This document shows positions 22,387 to 29,023 of a stretch of DNA of 54,132 nt, piece by piece. The notes under the pieces are model-generated. The model ran no database searches. It was not told the origin of the DNA and was given only the letters and a program-made list of their open reading frames with translations. Numbering within the stretch: position 1 is the first letter of the stretch; each line of letters begins with the position of its first letter. Origin of the DNA: Nitrososphaeraceae archaeon (GTDB lineage: Archaea; Thermoproteota; Nitrososphaeria; Nitrososphaerales; Nitrososphaeraceae); contig WHTU01000018.1 in the NCBI GenBank assembly GCA_009377575.1, positions 1-54,132 on the forward strand. The letters are read 5' to 3'. Made by a program: the position numbers and the translations under genes.

Positions 22387-23388
22387 ATGGAACTTCCTAG
22401 AAGGAGAGGAAAATCGCTCTCATATCAATACCATCTCCAAGAGAAGTATCAAGATAAAGACAAACAAGTGGATAAAGGTGTTAAGGCAAATTATTCGTCA
22501 AATGCATTTTGCCACTCATGTGACTCCAACTGGATGATCTTCGACGGAGCGACTGGCGAAACTATTTGTACGAATTGTGGTACTGTTATAACTGACAGGC
22601 CTACGATTTTGGAAGGTGGCCCAGGTTCTATTGAATCATTCGGTAATTCTGTATCACTTGCCTTTCCTGACAAAGGCCTGTCAACAGTTATCACTAGTGC
22701 AAATATCGACGCCTCAGGCTCAATTTTAAATCACGACCAGATTCAAAACGTAAACAAAATAAGGTATTTAGATAAGGTTTCAAATAATAATAGAACTCAA
22801 ATTAGAAACCTTAAAAATGCCTTTGTTACTATGGCCGCCATCAGGGACAAATTGACACTCACAGATCCCGTCATGGAAAGAGCAGCTTATTATTATCGTA
22901 AAACACTCCAAAACAAACTAATAAAAGGGAGATCTATCAGGGAAATGGTGGTCGCTTCCATATATGCTTCTTGTAAGGAGATGGAAGTACCTAGAACCCT
23001 GTGCGAGATATGTGACGCAGCTAACGCAGATCCTATATTTGCAGGTAAATGTTACAGAACGATGGCAAGAGAGTTAAGATTGAGTCCCTTAATTGTTGAT
23101 TCTACGCGATATATATCAAAAGTTGCCGACAGCGCCTGTGTCAGCCAAAAAACATACAGAAGAGCTGTAGAAATGTTAGATATTGTGAAGAAACATGCAG
23201 TATCCTACGGAAAGGATCCAAAGGCTCTTGCAACTGCAGTTCTTTATGCCGCATGCATAAAAGAAAATGAACCCAAAGTCAGTCAAGCAAAGATAGCAGC
23301 CGCAGGGAGCATCAGCGTGGTCACTTTGAGGAAAAGATTTTCAGATATATTAAGAATAATTCCAAGAGATACTAATAGATGTGCATGA
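22387..23388 (+). CDS. tfb: Transcription initiation factor B, variant paralogue
   Basis: 333 residues from ATG 22387. Zinc ribbon ligands are C42, C45, C61 and C64, followed by a B-finger region and the two cyclin-like repeats (first: RNLKNAFVTMAAIRDKL..., second: ISKVADSACVSQKTYRRAV... ending VVTLRKRFSDIL). TFB recruits RNA polymerase to TBP-bound promoters. It is close to the TFB at 27312 and more distant from the canonical TFB at 43879, so it is a lineage-expanded paralogue. The N-terminal 40 residues before the ribbon are an extra, polar extension. Confidence 0.93.
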   Translation: MELPRRRGKSLSYQYHLQEKYQDKDKQVDKGVKANYSSNAFCHSCDSNWMIFDGATGETICTNCGTVITDRPTILEGGPGSIESFGNSVSLAFPDKGLSTVITSANIDASGSILNHDQIQNVNKIRYLDKVSNNNRTQIRNLKNAFVTMAAIRDKLTLTDPVMERAAYYYRKTLQNKLIKGRSIREMVVASIYASCKEMEVPRTLCEICDAANADPIFAGKCYRTMARELRLSPLIVDSTRYISKVADSACVSQKTYRRAVEMLDIVKKHAVSYGKDPKALATAVLYAACIKENEPKVSQAKIAAAGSISVVTLRKRFSDILRIIPRDTNRCA

Positions 23389-25340: not shown

Positions 25341-26060
25341 CTAACCATGATGATGAAGGTCTCGCAACCTTTCATGAATTTGGTTCCTATATAGTGTTAA
25401 TCCAATTCTCTTTGCGTAAGGCTGTCCCTTTGCAAACGATTCAGCAATTTTTTTGACAAATTCTAAATCGACTTGTGGCGGCATTGGCGGATCGAATGGA
25501 TCTACATATACTTCGACTATCGTTGGCTTCTTCTCGGTCAACGCTTCATTTAGGATAGGTTTGACGTCTCTAGGCTCTGTTACAGTATAACCCTTTTCAC
25601 CACACGCCTCAGCAAATTTTGCGTAATCTATAGGCGTAAATTCTACTCCAAACTCTGGATTTCCTAGAAAGGCCATTTGCTCCCAGCGGATCATTCCCAG
25701 AACGCTGTTTTTAATTATTATCACTTTGATCGGCAAGTTGTGTTGAACTGCTGTGGCAAACTCTCCCATTAACATAGTGAAGCCACCATCTCCTACGAAA
25801 GCTATAGATCGTCTTGTTGGAAAGGCGATCTGAGCTGCGATGGCGTATGGTAGACCGTATCCCATACTCGCTAGAGTACCAGACAGCGAAAAATGCATTC
25901 CTCTTCTTATATTGATGTATCGAGCTGCCCAACTAGTGGTAGTTCCGCTATCTACCGAGATTATCGCGTCATCCTCTAGTTCATCAGATAAGATAGTAGC
26001 GACCAACTGGGGCTTAATTGGCTTATCAGTTCTTGAACCCTGTTCAGAGTTAATTTCCAT
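25341..26060 (-). pseudogene. C-terminal ThDP-binding half of a pyruvate oxidase/acetolactate synthase-like enzyme
   Basis: About 239 residues from ATG 26060. Only the third (PP) domain of the roughly 550-residue family is present: SGTTTSWAARY, the ThDP/Mg motif VGDGGFTMLMGEF (GDG at 90-92) with N118, and the PoxB-like tail YAKRIGLTLYRNQIHERL. The PYR and central domains are absent, and nothing upstream on this strand resembles them. It could be a remnant or a stand-alone subunit that pairs with a PYR subunit elsewhere; the intact ThDP motif argues for either recent truncation or retained use. Confidence 0.65.
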
Positions 26061-26066
26061 TTTAAA

Positions 26067-26156
26067 TGAACGGCATTGAACGGCTCTTTGAACGCTGATT
26101 GAACAGGCGGTTGAACGCCCATAAGGCAATTCTCTTTGAACGTTTTGAACGTTCAA
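26067..26156. repeat. Phased TTGAACG direct-repeat array
   Basis: Seven copies of TTGAACG or one-mismatch variants start at about 26066, 26076, 26088, 26099, 26111, 26136 and 26145, spaced about 10-12 bp (one double gap). The last copy continues into GTTCAA, making the perfect 12-bp palindrome TTGAACGTTCAA at 26145-26156. The array lies immediately upstream of ATG 26060 of the ThDP half-gene. Roughly helical phasing suggests a cooperative protein-binding array. Confidence 0.7.
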
Positions 26157-26382
26157 GATGTTCAGCATTAAACCAACTCATGGCTATGCATGAGTAAGGT
26201 AATCTAGTACGAAAGTTAATACTCGATATGAACAGTTAAAAGGGCACTTTCGTTTGGCCTCAAATTAGACGTAACGAGTATCTCAGAGAAGGGAAGATGT
26301 TTATGATCAATGAAAGTGGATGTATTATTCAATTACACTCGGAGTAATAATTCGAAGTAATAATATGGACATGCCCTTTTGA

Positions 26383-26541
26383 ATGGTAGTTAAAATTGGA
26401 TGGCATTATACTGGTTCCAACGAATGGCAGGCTGATCGGTTAGTCGGAGATAGTAGGTCAAGAATGAAGACGACAGATACTAACAAACTGCCTACCCCTT
26501 CCGCCATATTAGCAAATCTACTCATGAAAGGTATAAGATGA
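26383..26541 (+). CDS. Small hypothetical ORF
   Basis: 52 residues, ATG 26383 to TGA 26539-26541, too short for usual cut-offs. Sequence (VVKIGWHYTGSNEWQADRL, then a polar linker and SAILANLLMKGIR) is protein-like. No family known. Confidence 0.3.
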   Translation: MVVKIGWHYTGSNEWQADRLVGDSRSRMKTTDTNKLPTPSAILANLLMKGIR

Positions 26542-26863
26542 CCTTCTAAACTAAAGAAATAAGAGACTGGGTTATGTATTATTTACGGTAGCAAAATGTC
26601 TTCTACTAAATATGTGATCAGTATGATATTACTAGTGAATGGACATCCCCTTAATTGAGGGACTATTGTAGAACTAGCTATTACTATCTAAAAGGGTCAA
26701 CCAAATGTTGTACAACAGCACTCGAAACGTGTTGTCCATCTGTTGCCACCGTTGCTGCACCCAGCGGCATTTCGGAATACTATTCTTCATTGAAATTATC
26801 AAATGATTATCTGACCGTGCTAAGGTGAGATATCAAGCAAATCACGATAACGGTAGAGGTAGT
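26542..26863. other. Intergenic, nothing recognised
   Basis: About 320 nt with no supported frame. Confidence 0.35.
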
Positions 26864-27070
26864 TTATTTGCCCCCCGTCTTTATCGTACATTTTGGGCAT
26901 TTTCCCTTATCCGATCTAATGGAACAAAGCTTTCCCTTAGAGTTGAATGGACTATGAGAATAGATGAGCCCGCAATTCTCACATCTGTGAAGGTGAGTAC
27001 TTTCGCGAAAGATCTCGGAATTTTTTAACTGTTTGTCTATAACTATCCAAAGGTTGTCGCTGTCATTCAT
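26864..27070 (-). CDS. Small zinc-ribbon-like protein
   Basis: 68 residues from ATG 27070. A CENCG and a CPKC pair, about 30 residues apart with an extra Cys between, resemble a zinc ribbon; the N-terminal part (LWIVIDKQLKNSEIF) is helical. The plus-strand frame over the same bases is a shadow. Function unknown. Confidence 0.5.
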   Translation of the reverse strand: MNDSDNLWIVIDKQLKNSEIFRESTHLHRCENCGLIYSHSPFNSKGKLCSIRSDKGKCPKCTIKTGGK

Positions 27071-27311
27071 TCCACAATCCTCCCACTAATATAGATCACA
27101 ATACGTAATTTCTATATAAAAAGTCAGTGGATGGAAGCAGAAAAATTTCATAGACTTGTATTCACCGGTCTAAGGTAATCTAAAAAAACTTGATTTGCAG
27201 CAAACGTTGAATTGTAAGCACAATTTGCACTTGATTTATCACATCTATTGTCGTGACGCATTGAACAAAAAGTTCAAATAAGAAGTTTTTGATTAAAACG
27301 TGCTATTTGAT

Positions 27312-28310
27312 TCACTTGCGGTTTTTTGCATAATTTACCTCTGGGCATATTTTCAAAATGTCCGCAAGTCTCTTTCTTAGGGTTACTATACTTATGTTGC
27401 CTGCTGCTGCTATTCTGGATTGACTAATATTCACCTCATTTTTCTTTAAACAAGAGGCATACAAGACGGCTGAAGCTACTGCTTTAGGATCTTTGCCATG
27501 ACATATAGGATTCTTTTTTGCTACACTCAACATATTTACCGCCTCTCTATACGTCTGTTGACTGATCTGTGCATTGGTCGCTATTTTAGAAATGTATGAT
27601 GATGCGTCAACTATGGCAGGATTAATTTTTAATTTTCTAGACATTATTCTGTAACACCTACCTGAAAAAATAGGCTCTGCATTAGCAGCATATGATATCT
27701 CTTGTAATGTTCGTGGAACACTCATTTCTTTGCATGCGGCATATACGCTAGCCACAACCATTTCCTTTATTGCCCTTCCTTTGATCAATTTACTGTCAAA
27801 TGCTTTTCGATAATAGTATGCAGCTCTTTCTATTACGGGGTTGGTGAGTCCTAACTTATCGCTAACTGTTGCCATAATACCGAATGCGTTCTTAAAATTT
27901 CTTAGATGATTCTTGTTATTACCCCAGATCTTGTCCAAATATCTAATTTTGTTACTTGATGTAATCTGTTCTTGATTTAAGACAGTACCATTAGCATCAG
28001 TATTTGAGTAGGTTATAATAGTTGACAGACCCTTATCAGGGAAAACAAGAGAAGATGGCATGCCAGATCTGTTTCTCGCGTTTATATCGCTTATTGGGGT
28101 TTCCTGCCTATCCAAAACGACGGTACCACAGAACGTACAGATTATTTCACCAGTTAATCCATCGAAAATTGTCGCCTCACTCTTGCATGATGGACATTTG
28201 CGTGAATTAGTAGTAACTATGGGATTGTTTTGCCGTTCTATTTCTTGAACAGCGTTAACGGGATATTCGTATAGAATATATTCACCATGTTGTATAGATT
28301 GCTTCTTCAT
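27312..28310 (-). CDS. tfb: Transcription initiation factor B, variant paralogue
   Basis: 332 residues from ATG 28310 (ATG 28319 is three codons upstream). A TATA element (TATAAA on the minus strand, 28331-28336) is about 24 nt before 28310 and only 15 nt before 28319, so 28310 fits a leaderless mRNA. Zinc ribbon C39, C42, C58, C61; two cyclin repeats ending VVTLRKR-like IVTLRKRLADIL. Closest relative in the window is the TFB at 22387, to which it shares VFPDKGLST(V/I)IT and NKIRYLDK. It faces the RHH gene at 28448 across a 137-nt intergenic region. Confidence 0.93.
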   Translation of the reverse strand: MKKQSIQHGEYILYEYPVNAVQEIERQNNPIVTTNSRKCPSCKSEATIFDGLTGEIICTFCGTVVLDRQETPISDINARNRSGMPSSLVFPDKGLSTIITYSNTDANGTVLNQEQITSSNKIRYLDKIWGNNKNHLRNFKNAFGIMATVSDKLGLTNPVIERAAYYYRKAFDSKLIKGRAIKEMVVASVYAACKEMSVPRTLQEISYAANAEPIFSGRCYRIMSRKLKINPAIVDASSYISKIATNAQISQQTYREAVNMLSVAKKNPICHGKDPKAVASAVLYASCLKKNEVNISQSRIAAAGNISIVTLRKRLADILKICPEVNYAKNRK

Positions 28311-28389
28311 TACATCCATTTAGCTTATCTTTTATAAAAAACGTTGGTGTTTTGTGTAATTTATTTAATCAAATACGTTAAATAACTCC

Positions 28390-28407
28390 ACTTGTAATTA
28401 AACAAGT
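28390..28407. promoter_or_regulatory. Inverted repeat between TFB and RHH-family genes
   Basis: ACTTGT-AATTAA-ACAAGT, perfect 6-bp arms with a 6-nt spacer, in the shared divergent promoter region. It contains TTGTAATT, also found upstream of the other two TFB genes. Confidence 0.45.
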
Positions 28408-28447
28408 ACAATGTATTTCCCGGTAATGGAGACTTAGAAGCCCTTCC

Positions 28448-29023
28448 ATGAAGACAGCTACTAAAAGACGCAAATCTGCTACCGAAGGCGTAACGTTTAG
28501 ACTTCCTTCTGATAACCTAGAGCAATTATGCAAGGAAGCCGAGACAAGACAGATAAGCGTTAATACACTTGTAAATCAGATCGTCAACGAGCACCTGGAT
28601 TGGCATCTCTATGCTGCTCAGGCTAAACTATACTATGTACCAAAGCCATTCATATCGAGAGTCCTTGAAAAATTTACAGAACAACAATTATCCGAATTAG
28701 CAGAAGCGAGCGCTAAGAAGGATTTTGTTGACATAGGTTTACTGTTACGGGGAGAATTTACGATGTCCTCTTTCCTAAGTATTCTGGAAAACTGGTCAAG
28801 AATTTCAGATATCCCCTACAGAGCCGAAGAGATTGAAAATACTCAGAAGATCATAATTGAACATAATATGGGGTCAAAGTACTCTTATTTATTCAAGGAG
28901 ATTTACAGGCTATTATTGGAGAACTCGTTTGAAACAAAGGCGAAGTTTGATATTACAGATAATACTATCGTTCTAACTTTCGATCAGGGAGCTCGTCCGT
29001 TGGAAAAAGAGACCGAATGCTAA
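28448..29023 (+). CDS. RHH-type DNA-binding family protein (paralogue 1)
   Basis: 191 residues from ATG 28448. A basic arm precedes a ribbon-helix-helix: strand VTFRLPS, helix NLEQLCKEAETRQ, then ISVNTLVNQIVNEHL. The conserved C-terminal domain (about residues 60-180) has YYVPKPFISRVLEKF, LLLRGEFTMSSFLSILENW, IIIEHNMGSKYSYLFKEIY and a closing strand. The same two-part layout occurs at 38608 and 47294. It is divergently transcribed from a TFB gene, so mutual regulation is possible. The RHH would dimerise on DNA; the C-domain may sense a ligand. Confidence 0.72.
   Translation: MKTATKRRKSATEGVTFRLPSDNLEQLCKEAETRQISVNTLVNQIVNEHLDWHLYAAQAKLYYVPKPFISRVLEKFTEQQLSELAEASAKKDFVDIGLLLRGEFTMSSFLSILENWSRISDIPYRAEEIENTQKIIIEHNMGSKYSYLFKEIYRLLLENSFETKAKFDITDNTIVLTFDQGARPLEKETEC

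What the first reader, a model, noticed from the sequence alone, without database searches (positions are those of the whole stretch)
26060..26156. Helically phased TTGAACG array before an orphan ThDP half-gene
Seen: seven near-identical heptamers at about 10-12 bp spacing ending in the palindrome TTGAACGTTCAA, directly before ATG 26060. Array phasing near one turn is typical of cooperative binding. I know no thaumarchaeal factor for this motif.
Basis: partly seen in the sequence, partly recalled or inferred. Interest (0 to 1): 0.62.

Follow-up and report, generated by a model that had tools for sequence, protein, structure and literature searches.

The report
Dispersed half-site repeat beside gene relic
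The repeated TTGAACG sites are real, but they belong to a short non-coding DNA element scattered through this soil archaeon's genome and found only in its genus; here it happens to touch a broken gene, and sister species carry the same element built from a different repeated word, as if the protein that binds it had changed its taste.

Summary
The array is real and far above chance: five exact TTGAACG and seven TGAAC on one strand within about 90 bp, against at most 2 and 4 per 100 bp in 200 shuffles. It is not the operator of the ThDP half-gene. That "gene" is a 5'-truncated relic of a ~600-aa enzyme gene that is frameshifted or deleted in sister species, and its ATG at 26060 lies inside the repeat element. 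The element is absent from the orthologous locus in the two relatives that could be checked.

The array is one copy of a dispersed, non-coding, genus-restricted element: eight good copies in this genome and more in four sister species. Its anatomy is constant: direct TGAAC half-sites at 10-12 bp steps in variable number, a CCCATAAGGCAAATC linker (25-bp step), then TGAAC-N4-TGAAC/GTTCA-N4-GTTCA. Half-sites are conserved; the spacers between them are not.

Sister genomes carry the same architecture with TGACA in both the direct and the inverted positions. At the promoter of an ABM-domain gene, the orthologue has TGAAC here and TGACA in species G001.

Best reading: a non-autonomous, IS607-end-like mobile or ex-mobile element whose half-sites are bound by an unknown protein. 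No transposase was found: moderate confidence.

The parts
26042..26189 (+). Copy of the dispersed repeat element (family A, half-site TGAAC); the left arm of about 80 bp seen in fuller copies is missing here
   Evidence: Similarity to G000 C348, C380, C10 and G001 C505, C228; right edge shared with G001:C505 up to CATGGCTATG
26066..26117 (+). Direct array of five TGAAC half-sites at steps 10, 12, 11, 12 (starts 26067, 26077, 26089, 26100, 26112)
26117..26136 (+). Linker GCCCATAAGGCAATTCTCTT, homologous at all A copies and, as CTAGGGAAATCATT, in the TGACA family
26137..26164 (.). Four-half-site palindromic block TGAAC-GTTT-TGAAC/GTTCA-AGAT-GTTCA
   Evidence: among 84,980 GTDB genomes found only in G001 (TH526) plus one actinobacterium
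26041..26045 (.). GTTCA at the element/gene junction; TGTTC is shared by the gene and the element edge (microhomology)
   Evidence: synteny with G004:C13 ends at 26045
25344..26045 (-). C-terminal relic (TPP_enzyme_C domain only) of a ~600-aa ThDP-dependent enzyme gene; the 5' ~60% is missing
26046..26446 (.). Segment without counterpart in G004, where 2.5 kb (5' half of the ThDP gene plus a Ku gene) lies instead; synteny resumes at 26446-26545 and 26886-28870

Best explanation
The array is the working part of a short (about 130-400 bp), non-coding, genus-specific dispersed element. A protein binds its five-base half-sites cooperatively, on one face of the helix along the direct array and as an inverted pair of doublets at the far end. 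The anatomy (phased direct motifs plus an imperfect inverted repeat, no terminal inverted repeats, no coding sequence, copies at gene breakpoints) is most like the ends of IS607-type transposons. I read it as a non-autonomous or relic mobile element whose half-sites were, or are, transposase sites. In the window it lies at a deletion junction that removed the 5' half of an already decaying ThDP gene and the neighbouring Ku gene; it does not regulate that gene. Shown: dispersal, anatomy, conservation of half-sites over spacers, two half-site classes (TGAAC and TGACA) sharing one linker, gene truncation at copies. Inferred: that a protein binds the sites, that this protein is or was a transposase/recombinase, and that its specificity differs between sister species.
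For: Dispersed family in the own genome and four sister species, with no convincing copy outside the genus. The step pattern 10-12 (repeated), 25, 9 recurs at unrelated loci while the spacer sequence differs (GGCGG, GGTGA, ACTGA, GATGG/CTACGC). Mean column identity is 0.86-1.00 in TGAAC sites, 0.58-0.59 in the N4 spacers, 0.72 in the linker and 0.34 in the flank; N4 spacers are complementary in only 24 of 52 cells, so half-sites and not a hairpin are conserved. A second family has the same layout but TGACA in both direct and inverted positions, with a homologous linker. Copies lie at breakpoints of truncated genes: ThDP here (with both flanks syntenic to G004, so not an assembly chimera), a 286-aa ORF at G001:C505, and a deletion running from a gene into the array at G003:C451 relative to G000:C316. 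IS607 ends as published: no terminal inverted repeats, no target-site duplications, short helically phased direct motifs, imperfect inverted repeat (PMC6188088).
Against: No TnpA-like or TnpB-like gene was found in about 0.8 Mb of fetched DNA, including the surroundings of every good copy in G000 (regex only). No clean empty site and no single sharp boundary were found; copies differ in left extent. Several copies are at orthologous positions in two species, so mobility is at least not recent. The ABM-gene copies sit at one conserved promoter position, which fits regulation better than random insertion.
Confidence: 0.5

Rival explanations
1. Host regulatory or chromosome-organising platform: a genus-specific DNA-binding protein (regulator, segregation or nucleoid factor) uses the dispersed arrays as high-affinity sites, and its specificity moved between TGAAC and TGACA in different species, with the sites following.
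For: Half-sites are conserved over spacers. The element lies at the same place, linker about 150-210 bp upstream of an ABM-domain gene start, in all seven loci checked from five species, with TGAAC in G000, decayed TGAA in G003 and TGACA in G001, G002 and G004. Good copies are class-biased by species: G000+G003 have 10 A and 0 C, G002+G004 have 1 A and 8 C (bit-score cut 55).
Against: Most A copies are not in promoters; many lie between convergent ORFs. Copies decay freely in sister species. Several paralogous ABM loci may simply be duplications that carried the element along. The SegB consensus TCTAGASTCTAGA (PMC12284271) does not resemble the half-sites.
Confidence: 0.27
2. Neutral minisatellite: a dispersed repeat whose direct array expands and contracts by slippage, with no bound protein.
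For: Unit number varies widely (about 3 to about 18 direct sites) and units are locally homogenised, as slippage gives. Near the C348/G003:C4 pair the element is no better conserved than its flank.
Against: Slippage does not explain conserved half-sites beside variable N4 spacers in the non-tandem palindromic block, nor the joint change TGAAC to TGACA in direct and inverted positions with the linker kept.
Confidence: 0.18
3. Operator/promoter array controlling the ThDP half-gene.
For: The array starts 6 bp upstream of the ORF's ATG.
Against: The ORF is a 5'-truncated relic, with frameshifts in G004 and multiple deletions in G003. The ATG is inside the element. The array is absent from the orthologous locus in G003 and G004. 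Six base pairs leave no room for a promoter between array and start.
Confidence: 0.03

Closest known systems
IS607-family transposon ends (IS1535, ISC1926; PMC6188088)
   Same: Short helically phased direct motifs, imperfect inverted repeat near the end, no terminal inverted repeats, no target-site duplication seen; sites bound cooperatively by many transposase dimers in the known case
   Different: No tnpA/tnpB found between or near ends; 28-bp four-half-site palindrome and conserved linker are not described there; array length varies up to about 18 direct sites
Prokaryotic MITEs / small intergenic repeats (review PMC10969869)
   Same: Short, non-coding, multicopy, mostly intergenic, restricted to a few related genomes, associated with gene disruption
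   Different: No terminal inverted repeats; variable internal tandem array; no autonomous partner identified
CACTA (En/Spm) and hAT subterminal repeats (PMC2613891, PMC6188088; TNPA detail from own knowledge)
   Same: Many short transposase-binding motifs in direct and tail-to-tail orientation near element ends
   Different: Eukaryotic DDE elements with terminal inverted repeats; no sequence relation shown
Archaeal SegB centromere-like sites (PMC12284271)
   Same: Palindromic sites scattered over an archaeal chromosome
   Different: 13-bp TCTAGASTCTAGA, over 80% intragenic, no direct array

Membership tests
MITE | Terminal inverted repeats | tested here: not met
   Left arm against reverse complement of right arm scored no better than shuffles at 7 copies, p 0.31-0.93
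MITE | Target-site duplications | tested here: inconclusive
   No precise empty site or common boundary could be defined
MITE | Multicopy, non-coding, dispersed at unrelated sites | tested here: met
MITE | Related autonomous element with same ends | tested here: not met
   None in fetched surroundings of the copies; whole-genome search by transposase family not run
IS607-family element or derivative | Helically phased short direct motifs at the end | tested here: met
   Steps of 10-12 bp at about a dozen loci
IS607-family element or derivative | Imperfect inverted repeat near the end, no terminal inverted repeats | tested here: met
   28-bp block, 24/52 N4 cells complementary against 119/130 half-site cells; no terminal inverted repeats
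IS607-family element or derivative | Serine transposase TnpA with TnpB between the ends | tested here: not met
   No motif match in credible ORFs of about 0.8 Mb fetched DNA
IS607-family element or derivative | GG at element and target junction | tested here: inconclusive
   GGG (gene strand) near the window junction and GG near the G001:C505 junction by eye; boundaries too vague
Operator of the ThDP gene | Array conserved upstream of orthologous genes | tested here: not met
   Absent at G003:C119 and G004:C13
SegB/parS-like site | SegB consensus TCTAGASTCTAGA | tested here: not met
   Half-sites TGAAC/TGACA do not match the published motif; segAB genes not sought
REP-like hairpin or structured RNA | Stem maintained by complementary changes; Rfam family | tested here: not met
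   N4 positions not complementary; no Rfam match at E<=1

The most novel reading that the evidence does not exclude
A single lineage of DNA-binding protein, whose target word differs between sister species (TGAAC against TGACA), has an entire set of dispersed multi-half-site arrays that follow it, rewritten in both direct and inverted positions while linker and layout stay. That would be a natural record of a DNA-recognition switch across a genome, at orthologous promoters.
Probability: 0.2. Interest if true: 0.78.

Novelty: new variant of a known kind. Interest (0 to 1): 0.5.

Why it matters
It replaces a single-locus promoter puzzle by a genome-wide, genus-specific element family in soil ammonia-oxidiser relatives, whose non-coding repeats I found little written about. 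The paired half-site classes make a clean test system: two sets of natural arrays, one layout, differing in one five-base word, from which the binding protein can be fished and its change of specificity traced. It also explains an 'orphan half-gene' as a relic at a repeat-associated deletion, a trap for annotation.

Tried and rejected
Terminal inverted repeats: tested on seven copies, none. Hairpin/RNA element: no Rfam match, no pairing of spacers. Viral origin: no match for three patterns in IMG/VR. N-terminal half of the ThDP gene elsewhere in G000: only the full-length paralogue at C371 and distant homologues. Parent transposon: no serine transposase or TnpB by motif in fetched DNA, and the tyrosine recombinase 1.9 kb from the C10 array does not recur near other arrays. 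Common neighbouring gene: none for family A; ABM-domain gene for some copies only. Assembly chimera: rejected for the window because both flanks are syntenic with one G004 contig. Resemblance of GAAC-N7-GAAC to the alphaproteobacterial LexA box is from memory and was not tested. Literature searches gave nothing on such repeats in this group.

Full report
OBSERVATION. The array is there as described. Five exact TTGAACG and two near copies run on the + strand from 26066 to 26151, followed by the palindrome TTGAACGTTCAA. TGAAC starts at 26067, 26077, 26089, 26100, 26112, 26137 and 26146: steps 10, 12, 11, 12, 25, 9. The whole is richer than first seen. The last 28 bp (26137-26164) are TGAAC-GTTT-TGAAC/GTTCA-AGAT-GTTCA, four half-sites in mirror order. 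Two hundred dinucleotide shuffles of the window never gave more than 2 TTGAACG (4 TGAAC) per 100 bp on one strand, against 5 (7) observed.

THE 'HALF-GENE'. The ORF carries only the C-terminal ThDP-binding domain (PF02775). Related genes in the same family of archaea are about 600 aa, and G000 itself has a full-length paralogue on contig C371 (71% identical in the C-terminal part). The orthologue in G004 (90% identical) is broken by frameshifts. In G003, the nearest relative by DNA identity, the locus has lost several pieces, one of them with an end at the same window position, 26040. The window is syntenic with G004:C13 up to 26045 and again from 26446 and 26886; between them G004 has the 5' half of the ThDP gene and a Ku gene, and the window has the array segment. 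So the array lies at a deletion junction, and the apparent start codon at 26060 belongs to the repeat (the same TTAATTTCCATTTTAAATGAAC stretch recurs elsewhere). Neither G003 nor G004 has the array here.

A DISPERSED FAMILY. DNA and profile searches find the element at eight good places in this genome (contigs 99, 348, 10, 44, 380, 316, 266, 111) and at two in G001, one in G002 and two in G003, with decayed copies besides. Fuller copies extend about 80 bp further left. Units differ between loci (TTGAACGGCGG, TTGAACGGTGA, TGAACACTGAC, a 23-bp double unit), but the half-site and the 10-12, 25, 9 steps stay. In the palindromic block, half-site columns are 0.86-1.00 identical among non-orthologous copies, N4 spacers 0.58-0.59; the spacers are complementary in only 24 of 52 cells, half-sites in 119 of 130. 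This is what binding half-sites look like, not a hairpin. No terminal inverted repeats exist beyond the half-sites.

REARRANGEMENTS. Besides the window, the G001:C505 copy ends in a truncated relative of a 286-aa ORF that is intact in G003. In G003:C451 a deletion relative to G000:C316 runs from a coding region into the array, with both outer flanks about 93% identical. In G003:C143 a decayed TGACA-type copy lies about 10-25 bp beyond a synteny break with G000:C10. Other copies (C111/G003:C679, C348/G003:C4) are shared by descent, the latter on one side only.

A SECOND HALF-SITE CLASS. G001, G002 and G004 carry elements of the same layout with TGACA in place of TGAAC, both in the direct sites and in the inverted TGACA-N6-TGTCA, and with a homologous linker (CTAGGGAAATCATT against CATAAGGCAAATCWTT; intermediate forms CCTAGGCAAATC and GCTAGGTAAAACATT occur in TGAAC copies). 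Profile search gives good TGACA copies (55 bits or more) in G004 (6), G001 (5) and G002 (2), and none in G000 or G003, which have only weaker copies. Good TGAAC copies are 8, 2, 1, 2 and 0 in G000, G001, G002, G003 and G004. The species bias (10:0 against 1:8 for G000+G003 and G002+G004) is strong, but copies are not independent and the models were trained on them. At an ABM-domain gene (PF03992) the element sits at one upstream position in all seven loci compared: TGAAC in G000:C266, decayed in the G003 orthologue, TGACA in the 80%-identical G001:C235 and in four paralogues. Because the upstream region of G001:C235 is itself closer to that of the paralogues, promoter replacement by recombination is as possible as stepwise change.

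MECHANISM. Shown: a dispersed non-coding element with phased half-sites, two half-site classes, and copies at gene breakpoints. Inferred: a protein binds the half-sites cooperatively. The closest published mechanism is IS607 transposition, whose ends have helically phased direct motifs and an imperfect inverted repeat but no terminal inverted repeats and no target duplications (PMC6188088). No transposase was found near any copy by motif search, so membership is not claimed, only that it may work like one. A host-factor platform remains a serious rival because of the ABM promoter position; many family A copies, however, lie between convergent ORFs (ORF calls by length only). A pure slippage repeat does not explain the joint change of direct and inverted sites.

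VERDICT. The family, and above all its two half-site classes with one linker, is the real finding.

Noticed in passing
G004:C13:2619-3485 (L075): A Ku gene (PF02735) stands beside the ThDP gene in G004; it is missing from this place in the window, where the array lies instead.
   Followed up: partly
L124:3562-3990, L125:4015-4514, L117:1650-2191 and relatives: Another dispersed non-coding repeat (about 430 bp) in G001, G002 and G004 contains TGAAC sites, a GCCCATAAGGTAAAT linker and GTTAAC-type iterons; its outer edge TTTGGCAAGACTTTAAAGTGTATTAAATA is nearly identical in other genera (G006, G008), probably a transposon end.
   Followed up: partly
L176-L186, right flanks of TGACA copies: Many TGACA copies are followed by AAAGTGTTCAATACACTTTGTTAACAGTTAACAAATTAG, a perfect inverted repeat plus GTTAAC doublet, recurring at unrelated loci.
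   Followed up: no
L121 (G002:C68) right flank: Tandem CTGTTAACGGATTAACAAAT units: a further short-word array next to a TGAAC-type element.
   Followed up: no
window 22387-23388 and 27312-28319: Two TFB (TFIIB-like) genes lie within 6 kb of each other and face each other across the array region, with the order kept in G004.
   Followed up: partly
G023:C1:1578427-1580210: A ThDP gene of another genus is also split, into frames of 358 and 267 aa, so decay of this gene may be recurrent.
   Followed up: no
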